Shown one piece after another: positions 1 through 62,991 of a DNA stretch of 64,000 nt. The position numbers and the translations under genes are program-made. This DNA comes from Halopiger aswanensis. Lineage in GTDB: Archaea > Halobacteriota > Halobacteria > Halobacteriales > Natrialbaceae. Every line of letters begins with the position of its first letter. Positions within the stretch are counted from its first letter, which is position 1. The notes under the pieces are model-generated. The model made no database searches and was not told the DNA's origin. It worked only from the letters and a program-made list of their open reading frames with translations. The DNA lies in the NCBI RefSeq assembly GCF_003610195.1, contig NZ_RAPO01000002.1, forward strand, positions 124,001 through 188,000, given 5' to 3'.

Positions 1-52
1 CACTCACCTGTAAGTGAAGCGAATCTCCCCCTGTGCATACACCTGCTTAAAT

Positions 53-313
53 ATGACCAAACGCACCAGCTTGAAACTCACCGACGAACGGCAACGAAAA
101 CTCGACAAGGCCAGCTCAATTGTTGCAGAAGATGAATATGACGACCCACCGATGAGCGTGGTGATCGACGCTGCGCTTACGCACTTGGTAGAAAGTAAGC
201 AGAATATCGACAACGCCCGCGGTGATATCGACCCGGAGACGATCCAGACGGTTGCGAATACGTCTGTGATTGGGCTCAGATATCGGACAAGCATTGAAAG
301 CAAATGGCGATAG
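53..313 (+). CDS. small ribbon-helix-helix-like DNA-binding protein
   Basis: Predicted 86-aa protein beginning MTKRTSLKLTDERQ, a basic N-terminus followed by helices, as in haloarchaeal ribbon-helix-helix proteins that bind DNA as dimers. I recall a haloarchaeal family of this type (DUF7386), but that label is from memory. The start is placed at the ATG at 53 because an earlier in-frame ATG at 14 would add a cysteine-containing leader that does not look like the family. It lies 80 bp upstream of the SIR2 gene on the same strand and shares its low GC content, so both probably arrived on the same mobile element. It may be a regulator or antitoxin-like partner, which is inference. Confidence 0.7.
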   Translation: MTKRTSLKLTDERQRKLDKASSIVAEDEYDDPPMSVVIDAALTHLVESKQNIDNARGDIDPETIQTVANTSVIGLRYRTSIESKWR

Positions 314-362
314 AAACCAAGATAAGATTTCAGCCTCTGTTATTCGAAAACTCATAGCCAAA

Positions 363-372
363 TTATTATATC
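363..372 (+). promoter_or_regulatory. TATA box of the SIR2 gene
   Basis: The AT run TTATTATATC is centred about 26 bp before the ATG at 394. This is the spacing expected for a leaderless archaeal transcript, so the SIR2 gene can probably be transcribed independently of the upstream small gene. Confidence 0.5.
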
Positions 373-393
373 ATCTATGCTAACCCACACGAT

Positions 394-2190
394 ATGTTAT
401 CGGATCGGAGTTCTCATCGCCAATGGGCCACTAAGAAACTAAAAGAGACAATTGATGAATACGATTTGAGACCCATATTATTTATCGGATCTGGTATCTC
501 TCAAAGATATCTTGATGATGCACCCAGTTGGGATGGGCTATTAAGGGAATTAATAAACGAATGTCCGGACACGCACATTGATTACCCGTTGGAGTATTAC
601 AAACAAAAATATAGCAATCCACGCATTGGAACAGAAATTGCAGATGCTTATGCTGAGTGGGCGTGGGAAGTAAGAGAAACCTCAATATTTCCCGACTGGA
701 CATATGAACATGAAAATAGGGAGGTGTTTCTGAAACAAAAGGTATCGGAGAAGTTTGACGACCTCTCACCAGACTCTATCGAAGACTTCGATAAAAATAT
801 TGAAGAAGCAAAGATTCTTCAAGAGATAGGACCCCACGCAATCATCACGACAAACTATGATACCGTGATCGAAGAGGTGTTCCCCGACGAATATAACACA
901 ATTGTTGGTGAACAAGTGTATGACGTTGACTTCACGAGTATTGGTGAAATCTACAAAATCCACGGATGTACTAATGAACCGGAGAGTATCATTATAACTG
1001 AAAACGATTACCAGAGATTTTTGAATAGAAAGAAGTATTTGAGCGCAAAACTACTCACCTACTTTGCAGAACACCCTGTTGTTATTTTAGGATATGATAT
1101 CACAGACCAGAATGTTACCACTATTCTTTCTGACTTAGATACTGTTACCACTGATGATGAAAATGATCTTCTAGAGAATATTTTCCATATAGATTTTACA
1201 AGAGGAATATCCAATAATGATGATTTGCAGAAATATAGTGTGGTCAATCATGAAGATGGTGGGAGATCTCGCGTACGTTCTATCAGTGCAGAAGATTACA
1301 GTTGGATTTATGAGACACTCACCTATGAATCTGAACTTTCTGCTGTCAAAATAAAACATCTGAGAGAACTAATGAACAATACGTATAAGGTTGTAACTCA
1401 GGATGCCCCCAGAAAAAAGGTGCAGATCGAGATTCTTCAGCAGGCCTCTGATGAAGATGAACTCACAAATATGCTAGGCGTGCTCCCCATGGACGGAGAT
1501 TCTGAGAGTGCAGATATACTTAGGAAATATCTTATCAATCAGAAAGAATCTGAGACCCGAGATGGAGAGAACTTGCAAACAAACCTTGAGCTAGCGACAT
1601 TGACGTTCATTGGTGATAAGAACCAGACATTAAGTTCAGATGAAGTGGTTCTCATGATGAGGAAAGAGATCGACGAGTTAGATTGGAACGATGACCGATG
1701 TGAACTTCTTATCCACAGTAGTTTGGAAAATGGGTTACACGGTGTTGAATGGCTATTAATGCATAATGAGGATATCTCTGAAGTTCTTCATGATATCGCC
1801 GGGAAAGTCGGGAAGAAGAACAAAGCTCAACGACTCGAATACATTCTTTATGTTCTTGGGGAGGAGGAGCCCCTTCAAACTCTGTCGGAAAATGAAAGTA
1901 TTCAGCAGTATAAATTGAACTATGAAGAATTCCTTGAAAATATCAACAATCCTGTTGAAGAGAGAGTGGGTCGATATGGTGCCAGTGATACGATTCATTA
2001 CCCAGATGGAGAAACTACGTATGACGAACTATTAGGAGACCAGGAAAAGACTGAGAAAGTGTTGAATAGCCTGAATGAAGCAATACTTCCAGATACAGGT
2101 GTTGAATTAGGAAGAACAAACCCGAAGATGTACTTCAGAGCAGCAGAATTGGTTAAAATTGCGAATGTGACCGGCCTCACTAACGATTAG
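394..2190 (+). CDS. SIR2-family protein, candidate NAD-depleting antiviral effector
   Basis: 598 aa. The N-terminal part (about residues 25-260) has the hallmarks of a SIR2-like NAD-binding fold: GSGIS at 32-36, TTNYD at 152-156, KIHG at 188-191 and LGYDITDQN at 232-240. By family analogy N154 and H190 would be the catalytic pair. The remaining roughly 300 residues are predicted mostly helical and match nothing I recognise; in known defence proteins this position holds the phage sensor. SIR2 proteins of this shape (ThsA, DSR and SIR2-HerA families) cleave NAD+ during infection. The gene is visibly AT-rich against the GC-rich chromosome, which points to recent transfer. It ends 3 bp from a convergent winged-helix gene. 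The defence role is inferred from fold and context. Confidence 0.82.
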   Translation: MLSDRSSHRQWATKKLKETIDEYDLRPILFIGSGISQRYLDDAPSWDGLLRELINECPDTHIDYPLEYYKQKYSNPRIGTEIADAYAEWAWEVRETSIFPDWTYEHENREVFLKQKVSEKFDDLSPDSIEDFDKNIEEAKILQEIGPHAIITTNYDTVIEEVFPDEYNTIVGEQVYDVDFTSIGEIYKIHGCTNEPESIIITENDYQRFLNRKKYLSAKLLTYFAEHPVVILGYDITDQNVTTILSDLDTVTTDDENDLLENIFHIDFTRGISNNDDLQKYSVVNHEDGGRSRVRSISAEDYSWIYETLTYESELSAVKIKHLRELMNNTYKVVTQDAPRKKVQIEILQQASDEDELTNMLGVLPMDGDSESADILRKYLINQKESETRDGENLQTNLELATLTFIGDKNQTLSSDEVVLMMRKEIDELDWNDDRCELLIHSSLENGLHGVEWLLMHNEDISEVLHDIAGKVGKKNKAQRLEYILYVLGEEEPLQTLSENESIQQYKLNYEEFLENINNPVEERVGRYGASDTIHYPDGETTYDELLGDQEKTEKVLNSLNEAILPDTGVELGRTNPKMYFRAAELVKIANVTGLTND

Positions 2191-2193
2191 AAT

Positions 2194-2463
2194 TCATTCC
2201 AGTTCCTTTGTAGACAACTCTCCCTGAAGATATTCAAGGCCCTGACCGGTAATCTGATACCGACCGCTTTCGATTTTCTCCACTAATCCATATTCGTTTA
2301 AATCAGACAATTTCCGTGCAACGTTTTCCTGTGTATAGTCCAGATTATATGCGATGATCGCAGGAGACTGGATTTTAAGTTTCGTCTCTTGAGCTTCAGC
2401 TAACGATTCTAAAATATGATACGCACTTCGAGTCATCCAATCTGGTCTATCTCTAAGCGACAC
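2194..2463 (-). CDS. winged-helix DNA-binding protein (PhiH1-repressor-like)
   Basis: 89 aa with a GTG start at 2463. It begins MSLRDRPDWMTRSAYHILE and contains a recognition-helix region around YTQENVARKLSDLNEYGLVE, followed by a wing (KIESGRYQIT). This is the pattern of small haloarchaeal winged-helix proteins related to the phage PhiH1 repressor. It is convergent with the SIR2 gene, and the two stop codons are only 3 bp apart. It is AT-rich like its neighbour. In an integrated element such a protein would keep integrase or lytic genes off; that role is inferred. Confidence 0.75.
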   Translation of the reverse strand: MSLRDRPDWMTRSAYHILESLAEAQETKLKIQSPAIIAYNLDYTQENVARKLSDLNEYGLVEKIESGRYQITGQGLEYLQGELSTKELE

Positions 2464-2544
2464 AAATTTATCTACAGCAGCAGCTACAATCGTTATTTCT
2501 AATTAATCAGTGTATGCTGATCTCAGATTTGTTTCTATTGATTA

Positions 2545-2553
2545 GATATAAGT
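2545..2553 (+). promoter_or_regulatory. TATA-like box before the tnpB relic
   Basis: GATATAAGT is centred about 26 bp before position 2575. A transcript from it would start almost exactly where the recognisable tnpB/hairpin sequence begins. Half of the integrase palindrome (AATTTCGGTT) directly follows it at 2554-2563, so the same regulator may control both. Confidence 0.4.
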
Positions 2554-2576
2554 AATTTCGGTTGTTGGTGATTTGT

Positions 2577-2642
2577 AACGGAAGCCGGACGGACCAACCA
2601 GTACGTGGTTGGAATCTCGTCAGAAACGCAGGCCCGGTGTAA
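2577..2642 (+). pseudogene. tnpB: 3' end remnant of an IS200/IS605-type tnpB
   Basis: Reading from 2577, the frame gives NGSRTDQPVRGWNLVRN followed by AGPV and a stop at 2640-2642. The DQPVRGWNLVRNAG tail is, as I remember it, the C-terminal end of haloarchaeal IS1341-type TnpB proteins. A stop codon at 2553 and unrelated sequence upstream show that the rest of the gene is gone. The catalytic RuvC part is therefore absent and no nuclease can be made. The gene end overlaps the hairpins of the element's right end. Confidence 0.6.
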
Positions 2643-2683
2643 GGGCACCGACCTGCTGGCTTCCGTAACCACACTACGGAAGC
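2577..2683 (+). ncRNA. possible orphan omegaRNA/sotRNA at the tnpB 3' end
   Basis: Several stems can form here. The hairpin CCAACCA/TGGTTGG spans 2594-2612. GCAGG/CCTGC with CGGTG/CACCG inside spans 2628-2656. GCTTCCGTA (2659-2667) can pair either upstream with the ACGGAAGCC copy at 2578-2586 or downstream with TACGGAAGC at 2675-2683. In TnpB elements the guide RNA scaffold comes from exactly this 3' part, and sense overlapping transcripts are known from haloarchaeal IS1341 elements. Transcription here is inferred from the TATA box only. Confidence 0.35.
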
Positions 2684-2755
2684 ATGCAATTGCACGACAC
2701 CGCGGGGAATAAACGTCCCGCTCGAGAGTCGTATCGATCACATACGAACTCGGCA

Positions 2756-2902
2756 GTGAACGGAAAGGGCCACCACCACCCCGACGCTGTACCGCGCTTT
2801 CGGGTTTACCGTTCATTCTGGCCGTTTTCCGCTCACCGAAATAGAGCGGTTTTCTACCCGGATATCGTCACAGAGAGACGTTTTCGGCGATTTTCCGTTC
2901 AC
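2756..2902. repeat. three copies of an 11-bp motif upstream of the integrase
   Basis: TTTCCGTTCAC occurs inverted at 2756-2766, with one mismatch (TTTCCGCTCAC) at 2826-2836, and directly at 2892-2902, so the copies are spaced about 65-70 bp apart. Repeated short sites beside a tyrosine integrase gene are what arm-type recombinase sites or repressor operators look like. Confidence 0.45.
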
Positions 2903-2958
2903 CTCCGCTGTAGACACAAGAAGTACCCCCTCTTGCCAGTAGGTATGTTCGATCTGTC

Positions 2959-2974
2959 AACCGAAATTTCGGTT
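2959..2974. promoter_or_regulatory. perfect 16-bp palindrome before the integrase
   Basis: AACCGAAATTTCGGTT is a perfect palindrome ending 14 bp before the integrase ATG. Its right 10 bases recur at 2554-2563. The position suggests an operator that shuts off the integrase, possibly bound by the winged-helix protein encoded at 2194-2463 (inference). Confidence 0.45.
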
Positions 2975-2988
2975 ACGGGGGGTAGCGC

Positions 2989-4074
2989 ATGAGCGACGAA
3001 CTCGAGCCGATGAAACCACGGGAAGCCGTGGACATGTGGATCGATCGGCTGCAGTCCACGCGGGCTGACGAGACGCTCAAGAGCTACCGCTATCGGCTGA
3101 AACCGTTTCTCGAGTGGTGTAACTCGGAAGGAATCGACAATCTGAATGATCTCACCAGCCGTGACATCTTCCAATATGACTCACATCGGCGGTCTAAGGG
3201 GCTGAAGGTATCGACGTTAAATAACCAGATCGGCACGCTCAAGCAGTTCATTGAGTTTTGCGAACGGATCGATGCGGTCCCGGAGGGACTTCCGGCGAAG
3301 GTCGAAGTCCCGTCAGTCAAGCTGGCCGATCGAGTCAATGACGAGCTGCTGTCCGCCAATCGTGCCGAGACAATCCGAGAGAATCTACACCTCTACCAGC
3401 GCGCGTCGCGACGGCAAGCGATGTTCGAACTGCTTTGGCATACCGGCTGCCGTCTCGGTGGGCTGCGCTCGCTTGATCTTCGTGATTGCTTTTTCGAGCA
3501 ATCGGACCTCGAGCGGCTTCGCCATCAGGACGATATCGAGAAAGATGCGCTCGAGGCGGTCGACGTGCCATTTGTCTACTTCCGCCACCGACCGGAGACG
3601 CCGCTGAAGAACAAGCGCGAGGGAGAGCGTCCGGTGGCGCTCGAGCAAGAAGTTGCCGACCGAGTGCAGGAATACATCGACATAAATCGAGTCGAGCGAA
3701 CTGATTCGGACGATCGAAAGCCCCTGTTCACGACCGAGAAAGGCGAGAACGCCAGAGTATCGAAGTCGAGCATCCGGCGGGAGGTCTACATCATGACTCA
3801 ACCCTGTCAGTGGGGTTCCTGTCCTCACGATCGGAATATCTCGAAGTGCGAAGCCCGGGAGCACGGCCACGAGGCACGGTGTCCTTCGAGCCGATCACCG
3901 CACCCGCTTCGAACCGGCGCAATCACGCACATGCGCGATCAGGGTTGGCCGCCAGAAGTCGTCGCGGAGCGAGTGAACGCCACCCCTGAGGTGATCAGAG
4001 AGCACTACGACCACCCCGACCCGATCCGGCGAATGCAGTCTCGTCGCGAGTTTCTCACGGAGGACTCAGCATGA
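2989..4074 (+). CDS. tyrosine recombinase / phage-type integrase
   Basis: 361 aa. An N-terminal SAM-like core-binding domain (about 10-110, with TLKSYRYRLKPFLEWC) is followed by a catalytic domain. The first catalytic arginine is in HTGCRLGGLRSL (about 154-165), the H-x-x-R box is HPLRTGA, and the nucleophile is the tyrosine in VIREHYDHP near the C-terminus. A Cys/His-containing insertion (QWGSCPHDRN...CEAREHGHEARC) lies just before the HxxR box; this is common in haloarchaeal XerC/D-like integrases and may bind metal. It would integrate and excise the element that brought the SIR2 region. No tRNA gene or att duplication is visible nearby. Confidence 0.9.
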   Translation: MSDELEPMKPREAVDMWIDRLQSTRADETLKSYRYRLKPFLEWCNSEGIDNLNDLTSRDIFQYDSHRRSKGLKVSTLNNQIGTLKQFIEFCERIDAVPEGLPAKVEVPSVKLADRVNDELLSANRAETIRENLHLYQRASRRQAMFELLWHTGCRLGGLRSLDLRDCFFEQSDLERLRHQDDIEKDALEAVDVPFVYFRHRPETPLKNKREGERPVALEQEVADRVQEYIDINRVERTDSDDRKPLFTTEKGENARVSKSSIRREVYIMTQPCQWGSCPHDRNISKCEAREHGHEARCPSSRSPHPLRTGAITHMRDQGWPPEVVAERVNATPEVIREHYDHPDPIRRMQSRREFLTEDSA

Positions 4075-58693: not shown

Positions 58694-59824
58694 GTGGTTT
58701 ACGAGACGGGAAACGAGACGGTCGACGACGCGCTCGAGCGAGTGTTGGCCGGCGAGCGGCTCGATCGAACTGACGGACTAGCGCTGATCGCCCAGCCGGT
58801 CGAGCCGCTGGCCGAAGCCGGCGCGGTCGTGTGCGACCGCTTCGGCGACGGCACGGTCGACGCCTGCTCGATCGTCAACGCGAAGGCGGGCAACTGCGCC
58901 GAGGACTGTGGCTTCTGCGCGCAGTCGGTCCACTTCGACACCGGGATCGACACCTACGGCTTCCTCGGGCCGGAGAAGGTACTCGAGGCGGCAAAGCGCG
59001 CCGAGCGCGACGGCGCCCAGCGGTTCGGCATCGTCGTCGCCGAGAAGGGCGTCTCGAAGGAGCACCGTCCCGAGGAGTGGCGGGACGTCCTCGAGGCGAT
59101 CCGCCTCGTCCGCGAGGAGTGCGACCTCGAGGTCGACGCTTCCCTTGGGATTCTCACCGAGGAAGAAGCCGAGATCCTCGCCGCGGAAGGAATCAACCAC
59201 TACAATCACAACATCGAGACCTCGCCGCGGTACTTCCCCGAGATCGTCGATACGCACAGTTTCGAGGACCGCGTGCAGACCCTCGAGGTGGCCAAAGAGG
59301 CCGGGATGGACCTCTGTGCCGGCGTGATCCTCGGCATGGGCGAGACGCCGACCGACCGCGTCGAGGCGGCGATCGCCCTGCAGGATATCGGCGTCTCCTC
59401 GCTGCCAGTGAACGTCCTGAACCCGGTTCCCGGGACGCCGCTGGCCGAGCGGGGTGTCGAGATCACGACCGAGGAAATCGTGAAGACGGTCGCCGTCTTC
59501 CGGCTGCTCCACCCCGAGGCGCGCGTGCGCTTGACCGGCGGCCGCGAAGCCAACCTCGAGCCCGACGAACAGCACTTACCGCTCGAGGCCGGCGCCGACG
59601 GACTGCTGACGGGCGACTACCTCACGACCGACGGCCAGTCGCCCGCCGACGATCTCGAAATCATCGAGCGCGCGGGTCTCGAGCCGAACCGCGAGACGAA
59701 TGCGTTCGACCCCGAGGCGGTCAAAGCACGCCGCGGCGACGGCGAGGCGTCGACGGCCGAATCGGAGGCAGCGACGAACGCGGACGCGGACGCGGATGCG
59801 GATGCGGAACCGAGCGACGACTGA
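58694..59824 (+). CDS. bioB: biotin synthase
   Basis: 376 aa from GTG 58694. The radical-SAM Cys motif is NAKAGNCAEDCGFCAQSVHF (C-x3-C-x2-C), and HYNHNIETSPRYFPEIV, LCAGVILGMGET, SSLPVNVLNPVPGTPL and RLTGGREANL are all typical of BioB. It inserts sulfur into dethiobiotin using a [4Fe-4S] and a sacrificial [2Fe-2S] cluster. A DA-repeat tail (encoded by a GCGGAC/GCGGAT repeat near 59,779-59,810) is an unusual extension. First gene of the bioB-bioU-bioF-bioD cluster; bioU follows after 33 bp. Confidence 0.94.
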   Translation: MVYETGNETVDDALERVLAGERLDRTDGLALIAQPVEPLAEAGAVVCDRFGDGTVDACSIVNAKAGNCAEDCGFCAQSVHFDTGIDTYGFLGPEKVLEAAKRAERDGAQRFGIVVAEKGVSKEHRPEEWRDVLEAIRLVREECDLEVDASLGILTEEEAEILAAEGINHYNHNIETSPRYFPEIVDTHSFEDRVQTLEVAKEAGMDLCAGVILGMGETPTDRVEAAIALQDIGVSSLPVNVLNPVPGTPLAERGVEITTEEIVKTVAVFRLLHPEARVRLTGGREANLEPDEQHLPLEAGADGLLTGDYLTTDGQSPADDLEIIERAGLEPNRETNAFDPEAVKARRGDGEASTAESEAATNADADADADAEPSDD

Positions 59825-59857: not shown

Positions 59858-60967
59858 ATGGACGAAACGACGTTTGCAGTACTCGGCACCGGCGGTATCG
59901 GCAGACGAGCGCTCGAGGTCAGCCAGCACAAAGATGGGGTGACGCCGGTCGCGGCCTGCGACCGAAACGGCGTCGCCGTCGATTTCGACGGGCTGGACGT
60001 CGACGAACTGCTGGCGGCCACGGAAGGAAATATCGACAGCGGACCGAACGACGACGACGTTGCGGCCGACGGCGGCGCGGCAACTGGCGACGGCAGCACG
60101 ACTACCGACGACGGCGAGACGACGGTCGACTCGAGCGGCGTCAAACAACACGGCGAGCAACGAGGCGTCGTCGCCTCCGCGCAGGCTCGGCCCAGCGACG
60201 ATCCCATTCAGGACGTCATCGACGCGGGCGACGGGATCGACGCCGTCCTGCTCGCGCTGCCGAACTACGAGCACGACTTCATCCCCCGAACCGCGGATCG
60301 GTTCGTCGAGGGCGGCTACTCGGGCGTCTTGATCGACGTGCTCAAACGCTCGCGCGTGATTGACATGCTCGAGGATCGCAGCGACGACCTCGAGGCGGCG
60401 GGGATCACGTTCATCTGCGGCGCGGGCGCGACGCCCGGCTTCCTCACCGGCGCGGCCGCGCTGGCGGCCCAGTCGTTCGTCGAGGTCGAGTCGGTCGACA
60501 TCTGGTGGGGCGTCGGCCTCAAATCGGGCTACGAGGACAACCGCGGCACCGTCCGCGAGGACATCGCGCACCTCCCCGAGTACGACCTCGAGACCGCCCG
60601 CGAACTCTCCGACGAGGAGATCGAGGAAATCGTCGACGACCACGACGGCGTCATCGAGTTCGAAGACATGGAACACGCCGACGACGTGCTGCTCGAGCGC
60701 GCCGGGATCTGCGACGCCGCGGACGTCACCGTCGGCGGAATTTTGGACGTTCGCAGCGACGAGAAACCGACGACGACCACGGTTTCGGTAACGGGGACGA
60801 CCTTCGACGGCGAGCGCGCGACGAACACGTTCGAACTCGGCGACGAGACGAGCATGGAAGCGAACGTCAACGGGCCCGCGCTGGGCTACCTGAAGGCCGG
60901 CGTCAGGCGGAATCGAGCGGGCGAGTACGGCGTCTTCGGTCCCGCGGAACTGATGCCCGGCTTCTGA
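59858..60967 (+). CDS. bioU: BioU-like suicide dehydrogenase replacing BioA
   Basis: 369 aa. The N-terminal Rossmann motif is FAVLGTGGIGRRALEV. VLIDVLKRS (159-165) contains K163, which by position should match Lys124 of Synechocystis BioU, whose amino group is donated to the substrate. GAGATPGFLTGAAALAAQSF, REDIAHLPEYDLETAREL, FEDMEHADDVLLERAGIC and DETSMEANVNGPALGYLKAG follow the BioU pattern ('saccharopine dehydrogenase-like' in databases) as I remember it. It would turn 8-amino-7-oxononanoate into diaminononanoate, using its own lysine as amino donor, so each molecule works once. A roughly 45-residue Asp/Gly/Thr-rich insert (about 58-105) is unusual. It sits between bioB and bioF, and no bioA is seen. 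Confidence 0.8.
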   Translation: MDETTFAVLGTGGIGRRALEVSQHKDGVTPVAACDRNGVAVDFDGLDVDELLAATEGNIDSGPNDDDVAADGGAATGDGSTTTDDGETTVDSSGVKQHGEQRGVVASAQARPSDDPIQDVIDAGDGIDAVLLALPNYEHDFIPRTADRFVEGGYSGVLIDVLKRSRVIDMLEDRSDDLEAAGITFICGAGATPGFLTGAAALAAQSFVEVESVDIWWGVGLKSGYEDNRGTVREDIAHLPEYDLETARELSDEEIEEIVDDHDGVIEFEDMEHADDVLLERAGICDAADVTVGGILDVRSDEKPTTTTVSVTGTTFDGERATNTFELGDETSMEANVNGPALGYLKAGVRRNRAGEYGVFGPAELMPGF

Positions 60968-61035: not shown

Positions 61036-62268
61036 ATGACTCCGTTCACGCGAATGGAAGACCGCGACCGCGGGTTCGACCTCGAGGATCGGCTCGCGAC
61101 TCTCGAGGACGGCGACCTGAAACGGACGCTCTCGCCCGTCGACCGGGTCGCCGAGCGGGGCTACTTCGCCGAACCCTCCGGCGGGGACCTGCCGGTCCTC
61201 GAGACCGACGAGGCGCTCGTGTTCGCGTCGAACAACTACCTGGGGTTGACCGCCGATCAGCGGGTCCAGGACGCGGCCCGTCGGGCCGCCGCGACCGTCG
61301 GTACGGGTGCCGGCGCGAGTCGGCTCGTCACCGGCGACACGATGGTCCACCGGGACCTGGAGCGACTGCTCGCGGAAACCAAGGGCTGCGAGCGGGCGCT
61401 GACCTTCTCCTCGGGATACGCGGCCAACGTCGGGACGATCACGGCCCTCGAGCCGGACGTCATCTTCTCCGACGAACTCAATCACGCGAGCCTCATCGAC
61501 GGCTGCCGACTCTCGGACGCCGAGACGGTCGTCTACGACCACCGCGACGTCGCGGACCTGCGGTCGAAACTCGAGGCGCGCGCCGACCGTGACGACGCGA
61601 GCGAGGACCGGTGGCTCGTCGTCACGGACACCGTCTTCAGCATGGACGGCACCGTCGCCCCCCTCGAGGCGATCTGCGACCTCGCCGAGGAGTTCGGCGC
61701 GTGGGTGATGGTCGACGAGGCCCACGCGACGGGGTTGTACGTCGACGGCGGCGGCGTCGTGCAGGCCGAGGGGCTCGCGGACCGGGTCCACGTCCAGATG
61801 GGGACGCTCTCGAAGGCGCTGGCCAGTCAGGGCGGCTACGTCGCCGGCAGCGACGACCTAATCGAGTGTCTGGTCAACGAGGCGCGGTCGTTCGTCTACT
61901 CGACGGGACTGACGCCGCCGGCCGCCGCGGCGGCCAGCGAGGCACTGCACCTCGCGCGCCACGGCGACGCCCGCGAACGGCTCTGGGAGAACGTCGCCCA
62001 CCTCCGGGACGGCCTCGAGACGATGGGCTTCGACGTGCCCGGCGACTCCCAGATCCTCCCCGTGATCGTCGGCGACCGGGAGGATGCGCTCGCGCTCGCC
62101 GAGGGACTGCGCGAGCGCGATATCGTCGCGCCGGCGATCCGACCGCCCACGGTGCCAGAGGGGACGAGCCGCATCCGCGTGACGCCGATCGCGACCCACG
62201 ATAAGGACGATATCGTCACCTGTCTCGAGGCGTTCCGAACGGTCGGCGACGAGTTAGGACTGCTCTGA
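61036..62268 (+). CDS. bioF: 8-amino-7-oxononanoate synthase
   Basis: 410 aa from ATG 61036; ATG 61054 or GTG 60985 are alternatives. It is a PLP fold-type I alpha-oxoamine synthase: FASNNYLGLT, GTGAGASRLVTGDTMVHRDLE, FSSGYAANVG, DELNHASLIDG, VVTDTVFSMDGTVAPL and VDEAHATGLY. The PLP lysine is in QMGTLSKALASQGGYVAGS. It condenses pimeloyl-thioester with alanine. The product feeds the BioU-like enzyme encoded just upstream; bioD follows after 12 bp. Confidence 0.94.
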   Translation: MTPFTRMEDRDRGFDLEDRLATLEDGDLKRTLSPVDRVAERGYFAEPSGGDLPVLETDEALVFASNNYLGLTADQRVQDAARRAAATVGTGAGASRLVTGDTMVHRDLERLLAETKGCERALTFSSGYAANVGTITALEPDVIFSDELNHASLIDGCRLSDAETVVYDHRDVADLRSKLEARADRDDASEDRWLVVTDTVFSMDGTVAPLEAICDLAEEFGAWVMVDEAHATGLYVDGGGVVQAEGLADRVHVQMGTLSKALASQGGYVAGSDDLIECLVNEARSFVYSTGLTPPAAAAASEALHLARHGDARERLWENVAHLRDGLETMGFDVPGDSQILPVIVGDREDALALAEGLRERDIVAPAIRPPTVPEGTSRIRVTPIATHDKDDIVTCLEAFRTVGDELGLL

Positions 62269-62280
62269 GACGGACGGACG

Positions 62281-62991
62281 ATGAACGAATCCGAACCGAT
62301 CGACGCGAACGGACCGATCGCCGTCGTCGGCACCGACACCGGCGTCGGCAAAACTGTCGTCACCGCGGCCCTCACGCGTTATTTTCGTAAGTCGGATATC
62401 GACGCCCGAGCGATCAAACCCGCTCAAACCGGACACCCGCCAGATGACGACGCCGGCTTCGTGGCCGACGCCTGTGACGACCCCGACGCCGCGACCTGTC
62501 TCCGATACCTCGAGCCCGCGCTCGCGCCGCGGGTCGCCGCCGAGGTGGCCGACGAGGACCTCTCGTACGAGTCGATCCTGGCCGCCTGTCGACGCGAATG
62601 CGAGGGAACGCCGCTGCCCCTCGTCGAAGGCATCGGCGGCCTGCGCGTCCCGCTGGCCGGCGACCGCGAGGTGATCGACCTCGTCGCCGATCTCGAGGCG
62701 ACGGCGGTCGTCGTCGCGCGGTCCGGACTGGGGACGCTCAACCACACGGCGCTCACCGGCGAGGCCCTCGAGCGCCGCGGCGTTCCGGTCGCCGGAATCG
62801 TCTGTAACGAGTACGAGGGCGCGTCGCTCGCCGAGCGGACGAACCCCGACGAACTCGAGCGGCTGACCGGCGTCCGCGTCGAGACGGTCCCGCCGCTCGA
62901 GGGCGGACCGACGGCGCTGGCAGACGGCGTCGCCGACGCGCTCTCGACGAGGTTGTTCGATCGACTCGAGCGACTGGCGGCGGAGAGATAA
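62281..62991 (+). CDS. bioD: dethiobiotin synthetase
   Basis: 236 aa. P-loop VVGTDTGVGKTVVTAAL (about 15-31), then AIKPAQTGHPPDDDAG, LVEGIGGLRVPLAGDREVIDLVADL and ARSGLGTLNHTALTGEAL, all BioD motifs. It closes the ureido ring of dethiobiotin from diaminononanoate, CO2 and ATP. In cyanobacteria the BioU product is thought to be a carbamate of diaminononanoate, which BioD could use directly. Last gene of the operon. Confidence 0.94.
   Translation: MNESEPIDANGPIAVVGTDTGVGKTVVTAALTRYFRKSDIDARAIKPAQTGHPPDDDAGFVADACDDPDAATCLRYLEPALAPRVAAEVADEDLSYESILAACRRECEGTPLPLVEGIGGLRVPLAGDREVIDLVADLEATAVVVARSGLGTLNHTALTGEALERRGVPVAGIVCNEYEGASLAERTNPDELERLTGVRVETVPPLEGGPTALADGVADALSTRLFDRLERLAAER

What the first reader, a model, noticed from the sequence alone, without database searches (positions are those of the whole stretch)
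59858..60967. Archaeal biotin operon with a BioU-type suicide enzyme in place of BioA
The cluster runs bioB, an unexpected dehydrogenase-fold gene, bioF, bioD, and lacks bioA. The odd gene has the Rossmann start, a VLIDVLKRS lysine and the EDMEHADDVLLE and GDETSMEANVNGP blocks I associate with cyanobacterial BioU. BioU gives up its own lysine amine to make diaminononanoate. K163 is the predicted sacrificial lysine. A single-turnover enzyme in a halophilic archaeon, encoded inside the biotin operon, would extend this chemistry to another domain of life. Family membership is from remembered motifs, not a database search.
Basis: partly seen in the sequence, partly recalled or inferred. Interest (0 to 1): 0.78.

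Follow-up and report, generated by a model that had tools for sequence, protein, structure and literature searches.

The report
Haloarchaeal BioU in a biotin operon
A salt-loving archaeon makes biotin with an operon in which the usual enzyme BioA is replaced by a relative of BioU, the cyanobacterial enzyme that sacrifices one of its own lysines per reaction; the same arrangement runs through many haloarchaea and fills a known gap in their biotin pathway.

Summary
Window 59858-60967 encodes a 369-aa protein between bioB and bioF-bioD. It matches NCBIfam BioU (E=3e-101) and the solved Synechocystis BioU Slr0355 (E=4e-83, 46% identity). Its AlphaFold model superposes on BioU structures (TM 0.82-0.83). 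K163 aligns with the sacrificial Lys124 and H273 with His233; both are kept in every intact haloarchaeal relative examined. No bioA reaches the family cut-off in this genome or in 80 other Halobacteria. About 150 of 391 sampled Halobacteria species carry BioU, nearly always as bioB-bioU-bioF-bioD. bioD occurs in 29/29 BioU-positive and 0/40 BioU-negative genomes tested. Natronomonas pharaonis, reported as a biotin prototroph, has this operon and no bioA over cut-off; Natrialba magadii, a reported auxotroph, lacks it. A 2018 survey found haloarchaea with bioF, bioD and bioB but never bioA. Public plasmid records name the gene "transcriptional regulator". So this is an archaeal branch of a known enzyme kind, not a new kind. 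Single-turnover chemistry is inferred, not shown, and the source of pimeloyl-CoA is unknown. I could not read the original BioU paper, so whether it already mentions haloarchaea is unresolved.

The parts
58694..59824 (+). bioB, biotin synthase (radical SAM, BATS domain)
   Evidence: TIGR00433 341.8 bits over cut-off 225; PF04055 and PF06968. Start inferred from the GTG aligned with the start in relatives.
59858..60967 (+). bioU homolog, 369 aa; predicted to convert 8-amino-7-oxononanoate to carboxylated 7,8-diaminononanoate
   Evidence: NF047886 BioU E=3.4e-101, 338 bits, below the curated cut-off of 600; PDB Slr0355/BioU E=3.9e-83; 145/318 identical; AF2 model TM 0.82-0.83 to 6itd/6ir4/6k38
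60344..60346 (+). codon of Lys163, predicted sacrificial lysine (Lys124 of Slr0355)
   Evidence: same column as the K-to-A site of 6itd; K in all intact haloarchaeal homologs, the one exception L094 being a broken translation
60674..60676 (+). codon of His273, equivalent of His233 of Slr0355 (Ala in 6k38)
   Evidence: alignment; H in 92 of 92 haloarchaeal sequences
60026..60163 (+). haloarchaeal insertion (about residues 57-102), Gly/Thr/Asp-rich, variable in length and predicted disordered
   Evidence: pLDDT below 50 for residues 57-83 and 86-102; 50 residues here versus 11 in Slr0355 for the same stretch
61036..62268 (+). bioF, 8-amino-7-oxononanoate synthase
   Evidence: TIGR00858 E=2.4e-124, 414.8 bits, just under cut-off 426.45; start
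62281..62991 (+). bioD, dethiobiotin synthetase
   Evidence: TIGR00347 106.7 bits over cut-off 83.3

Best explanation
The gene is a haloarchaeal bioU that stands in for bioA. BioF makes 8-amino-7-oxononanoate (KAPA). BioU condenses the KAPA ketone with the epsilon-amine of its own Lys163, reduces the imine with NAD(P)H, carboxylates the 8-amino group with CO2/bicarbonate, and re-oxidises on the lysine side. This releases 7,8-diaminononanoate-carbamate and leaves Lys163 as allysine, so each protein molecule works once. BioD then closes the ureido ring and BioB inserts sulphur. Shown here: family, residue alignment, fold, operon, absence of bioA, co-occurrence, link to prototrophy. Inferred from Slr0355: the chemistry and the single turnover.
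For: BioU profile E=3e-101; Slr0355 structures E=4e-83, with K163 and H273 on the residues mutated in 6itd and 6k38; 46% identity, with 84 positions at least 98% conserved in haloarchaea and identical in Slr0355; AF2 model best matches are five BioU structures, TM 0.81-0.83, the next class only 0.49. Order bioB-bioU-bioF-bioD in nearly all loci from many genera (among 57 long loci bioB 56, bioF 54, bioD 54). No bioA over cut-off in this genome or in 80 Halobacteria. bioB in 40/40 BioU-positive vs 8/40 BioU-negative genomes; bioD 29/29 vs 0/40 (Fisher p=4e-20, not corrected for kinship). In the eight bioB-positive BioU-negative genomes bioU is absent or a remnant and no bioD passes the cut-off. 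Natrialba magadii (contig lengths) is reported as an auxotroph and lacks bioU, bioB and bioD. Published survey: Halobacteria bioA 0/31 but bioF 18, bioD 14, bioB 19 (PMC6138646). Mechanism of BioU as summarised in PMC12915131.
Against: No biochemistry or genetics on any haloarchaeal member was found in the library. The score (338 bits) is well under the NCBIfam curated cut-off of 600, so NCBI's own rule would not name it BioU. Class III aminotransferases of unknown specificity exist in the genome and could in principle have BioA activity. The upstream pathway is incomplete: no BioW and no BioC over cut-off.
Confidence: 0.9

Rival explanations
1. A BioU homolog that makes the same product but as a true multi-turnover catalyst, for example using an external amino donor or having its lysine restored.
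For: The protein is about half diverged from Slr0355, has an extra flexible insertion and works in a high-salt cytoplasm; no turnover data exist.
Against: The sacrificial lysine and His233 are invariant in every intact haloarchaeal sequence, and the lysine is the amine source in the studied enzyme. No lysine-less variant was seen.
Confidence: 0.07
2. A dehydrogenase or regulator of another function that happens to sit in the bio operon (public records call it 'transcriptional regulator'), with one of the class III aminotransferases acting as BioA.
For: Annotation in plasmid records; six class III aminotransferase-like hits to the bioA profile in the genome.
Against: No DNA-binding family in Pfam; the fold is BioU. 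The bioA-profile hits score 110-233 against a cut-off of 405; four score higher as argD, diaminobutyrate or GABA transaminases and two read as glutamate-1-semialdehyde aminomutases (read by eye). Strict co-occurrence with bioD.
Confidence: 0.03

Closest known systems
BioU of Synechocystis sp. PCC 6803 (Slr0355; PDB 6ir4, 6itd, 6k36, 6k37, 6k38)
   Same: Homologous over the full fold; Lys124 and His233 equivalents conserved; same predicted step, replacing BioA
   Different: 46% identity; variable Gly/Thr/Asp-rich insertion; encoded inside a bioB-bioU-bioF-bioD operon in Archaea; activity untested
BioA (TIGR00508), PLP-dependent diaminopelargonate aminotransferase
   Same: Same pathway step (KAPA to diaminopelargonate)
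   Different: Unrelated fold and chemistry; absent over cut-off from the BioU-bearing haloarchaea tested
meso-diaminopimelate / D-amino acid dehydrogenases, Gfo/Idh/MocA oxidoreductases
   Same: Rossmann dehydrogenase relatives, the next structural matches (TM about 0.5)
   Different: Much weaker structural match and not detected by sequence in the PDB search; ordinary catalysts
BioW-BioF-BioA-BioD-BioB set of Methanococcales (PMC6138646)
   Same: Archaeal biotin synthesis
   Different: Uses BioA and BioW; this haloarchaeon has neither

Membership tests
BioU | Full-length homology to Slr0355 / NF047886 | tested here: met
   E=3e-101, best stretch profile 42-321 of 323; E=4e-83 to PDB chains; fold TM 0.82-0.83
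BioU | Curated NCBIfam equivalog cut-off (600 bits) | tested here: not met
   338.5 bits; none of 391 Halobacteria reach it. I read this as a naming threshold set on cyanobacterial members, not as a functional boundary.
BioU | Sacrificial lysine (Lys124) | tested here: met
   K163 on the K-to-A column of 6itd; invariant in intact homologs
BioU | Active-site His233 | tested here: met
   H273, column of the H-to-A change in 6k38; 92/92 conserved
BioU | Genome lacks bioA but holds bioF, bioD, bioB | tested here: met
   for this genome; for relatives
BioU | Single-turnover conversion of KAPA to diaminononanoate carbamate with Lys to allysine | not testable with these tools
   needs purified protein, KAPA, NAD(P)H and bicarbonate
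BioA | TIGR00508 over cut-off 405 / PLP aminotransferase fold | tested here: not met
   the gene has a Rossmann dehydrogenase fold; best genome hit 233 bits

The most novel reading that the evidence does not exclude
Haloarchaea across about ten families depend on a single-use protein for every biotin molecule they make. BioU reached them by gene transfer to or from cyanobacteria, is repeatedly lost or carried on plasmids, and works with a still unknown archaeal source of pimeloyl-CoA (no BioW, no BioC over cut-off).
Probability: 0.6. Interest if true: 0.6.

Novelty: new member of a known kind. Interest (0 to 1): 0.5.

Why it matters
Haloarchaea were recorded as having bioF, bioD and bioB but never bioA (PMC6138646), so how they make biotin was an open gap, although some are prototrophs. 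BioU fills it, moves the sacrificial-lysine chemistry from cyanobacteria into a second domain of life, and explains a gene that public plasmid records call a transcriptional regulator. It also gives a genomic marker for biotin prototrophy in the class and, because the operon occurs in Haloferax, a genetically tractable setting in which to ask why a cell would pay one protein per vitamin molecule.

Tried and rejected
Lysine variation: the only non-K at position 163 (R in L094) is a frame break or assembly gap, not a variant. A BioD-like hit beside bioB in G138 is part of a 355-aa protein that reads as a phosphotransacetylase-type protein next to an acyl-CoA synthetase, not BioD (read by eye, not profiled). 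Whether a different gene replaces bioU in bioB-positive BioU-negative genomes: not seen in the eight examined; bioU is gone or a remnant and bioD is gone too. BioU outside Halobacteria: in 295 genomes drawn from the phylum only Halobacteria members matched. A pimelate gene in the conserved neighbourhood: none; the frequent flanking gene is rfcL. The original BioU paper (Sakaki 2020) is not held, and papers in the library that hold the terms BioU with haloarchaea or Haloferax are unrelated. Cyanobacterial genomes could not be sampled, so no tree of haloarchaeal versus cyanobacterial BioU was made. The 'transcriptional regulator' reading was rejected on fold.

Full report
Observation. Window 59858-60967 (+) holds a 369-aa ORF between bioB and bioF-bioD. 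NCBIfam gives bioB (342 bits, over cut-off), bioF (415 bits, cut-off 426), bioD (107 bits, over cut-off) and, for the odd gene, NF047886 BioU at E=3.4e-101 and 338 bits, well under that model's curated cut-off of 600. Intergenic gaps are 33 (bioB-bioU), about 68 (bioU-bioF) and 12 bases (bioF-bioD), consistent with one operon. Pfam has only weak Rossmann hits to the odd gene.

Identity. A plain sequence search of the PDB returns the Synechocystis Slr0355 (BioU) chains at E=4e-83 and nothing else convincing. The lysine in GVLIDVLKRS lies on the position that is Ala in 6itd (BioU K124A), and the His of EDMEH lies on the position that is Ala in 6k38 (H233A). Identity is 145/318 aligned residues; 84 positions are at least 98% conserved in haloarchaea and the same in Slr0355. 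An AlphaFold model from 22 haloarchaeal sequences (mean pLDDT 73) finds the five BioU structures first (TM 0.81-0.83, E about 1e-40); the next matches, amino-acid dehydrogenases, reach only TM 0.49. The low-confidence stretch, residues 57-102, is a Gly/Thr/Asp-rich insertion that varies among haloarchaea and is mostly absent from Slr0355. dN/dS against nine relatives is 0.10-0.23, so the gene is under purifying selection.

Conservation. 62 loci from named haloarchaeal genomes and 30 from unnamed ones were examined. Nearly all have the order bioB-bioU-bioF-bioD; among the 57 long loci bioB is present in 56 and bioF and bioD in 54. Lys163 is conserved in every intact sequence; the single exception is a broken translation. 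By my count of the strong matches, about 150 of 391 sampled Halobacteria species carry BioU, in about ten of eleven families. In a draw of 295 genomes from the whole phylum, only Halobacteria members matched.

bioA and the rest of the pathway. The best bioA-profile hits in this genome score 110-233 bits against a cut-off of 405. Four were profiled and score higher as ornithine, diaminobutyrate or GABA-type transaminases; the other two read as glutamate-1-semialdehyde aminomutases (by eye). None of 80 further Halobacteria has bioA over the cut-off, while six of fourteen control genomes do. bioB is in 40/40 BioU-positive and 8/40 BioU-negative genomes; bioD over cut-off is in 29/29 and 0/40. Fisher p values (7e-15, 4e-20) ignore kinship and overstate certainty. 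This genome has a biotin ligase and a BioY transporter, but no BioW and no BioC over cut-off; the source of pimeloyl-CoA is not identified, and no extra conserved biosynthetic gene was seen at the locus.

Decay as a natural test. In the eight bioB-positive, BioU-negative genomes, bioU is missing or survives only as a fragment (L112, L114, L115, L116), and none has bioD over cut-off. In the same-genus genome G242, bioB is followed directly by bioF (85% and 93% identical to the window's) with bioU and bioD gone. bioU is thus lost with the pathway and no substitute appears.

Phenotype link. G099 has contigs of 2595221, 130989 and 23486 bases, matching the published chromosome size of Natronomonas pharaonis DSM 2160 and, summed, its total genome size. 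It carries bioB-bioU-bioF-bioD and no bioA over cut-off. G032 has contigs of 3751858, 378348, 254950 and 58487 bases, exactly Natrialba magadii ATCC 43099; it lacks bioU, bioB and bioD. The literature states that N. [quoted passage not shown] magadii an auxotroph (PMC3403918). The prototroph statement is second-hand there, citing an earlier genome paper.

What is known. Chow et al. 2018 list Halobacteria with bioF 18, bioD 14, bioB 19 and bioA 0 of 31 (PMC6138646). BioU's three-step, single-turnover mechanism on Lys124 is summarised in PMC12915131. The primary paper (Sakaki et al. 2020) is not held. From memory it may mention homologs outside cyanobacteria; I cannot confirm this, and it limits the novelty claim. 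Six of seven plasmid records with a hit call the gene 'transcriptional regulator' and the seventh 'hypothetical protein' (contexts).

Verdict. A haloarchaeal BioU replacing BioA, well supported by sequence, structure, synteny, co-occurrence and a prototroph/auxotroph pair. Single turnover is inferred from homology. New member of a known kind, in a second domain of life, resolving a recorded gap.

Noticed in passing
window 1-4074: Low-GC patch (47% against about 65%) with a SIR2-like ORF (394-2190; PADLOC PDC-S25 E=1e-76, weaker ThsA) and an integrase-type recombinase (2989-4074): a likely inserted defence island.
   Followed up: partly
NZ_CP078064.1 (L109), NZ_CP119793.1 (L110), CP031304.1 (L108): The complete bioB-bioU-bioF-bioD set lies on haloarchaeal plasmid records, so it may move between species; bioU is annotated 'transcriptional regulator'. 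L108 also carries sucCD and rfcL as the window does, so that 987-kb 'plasmid' may be a chromosome piece.
   Followed up: partly
L111 (G242) and L112-L118: Decaying biotin loci that keep bioB (some also bioF) but have lost bioU and bioD; bioB alone may salvage dethiobiotin.
   Followed up: partly
whole genome G000: No BioW, no BioC over cut-off and no conserved neighbour that could make pimeloyl-CoA; the haloarchaeal source of the pimelate moiety is unknown.
   Followed up: partly
L044, L053, L081: bioB-bioU without bioF and bioD next to it (two Halostagnicola loci, and a second copy in Halorientalis salina, which also has the full set in L079); whether the Halostagnicola genes lie elsewhere was not checked.
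   Followed up: no
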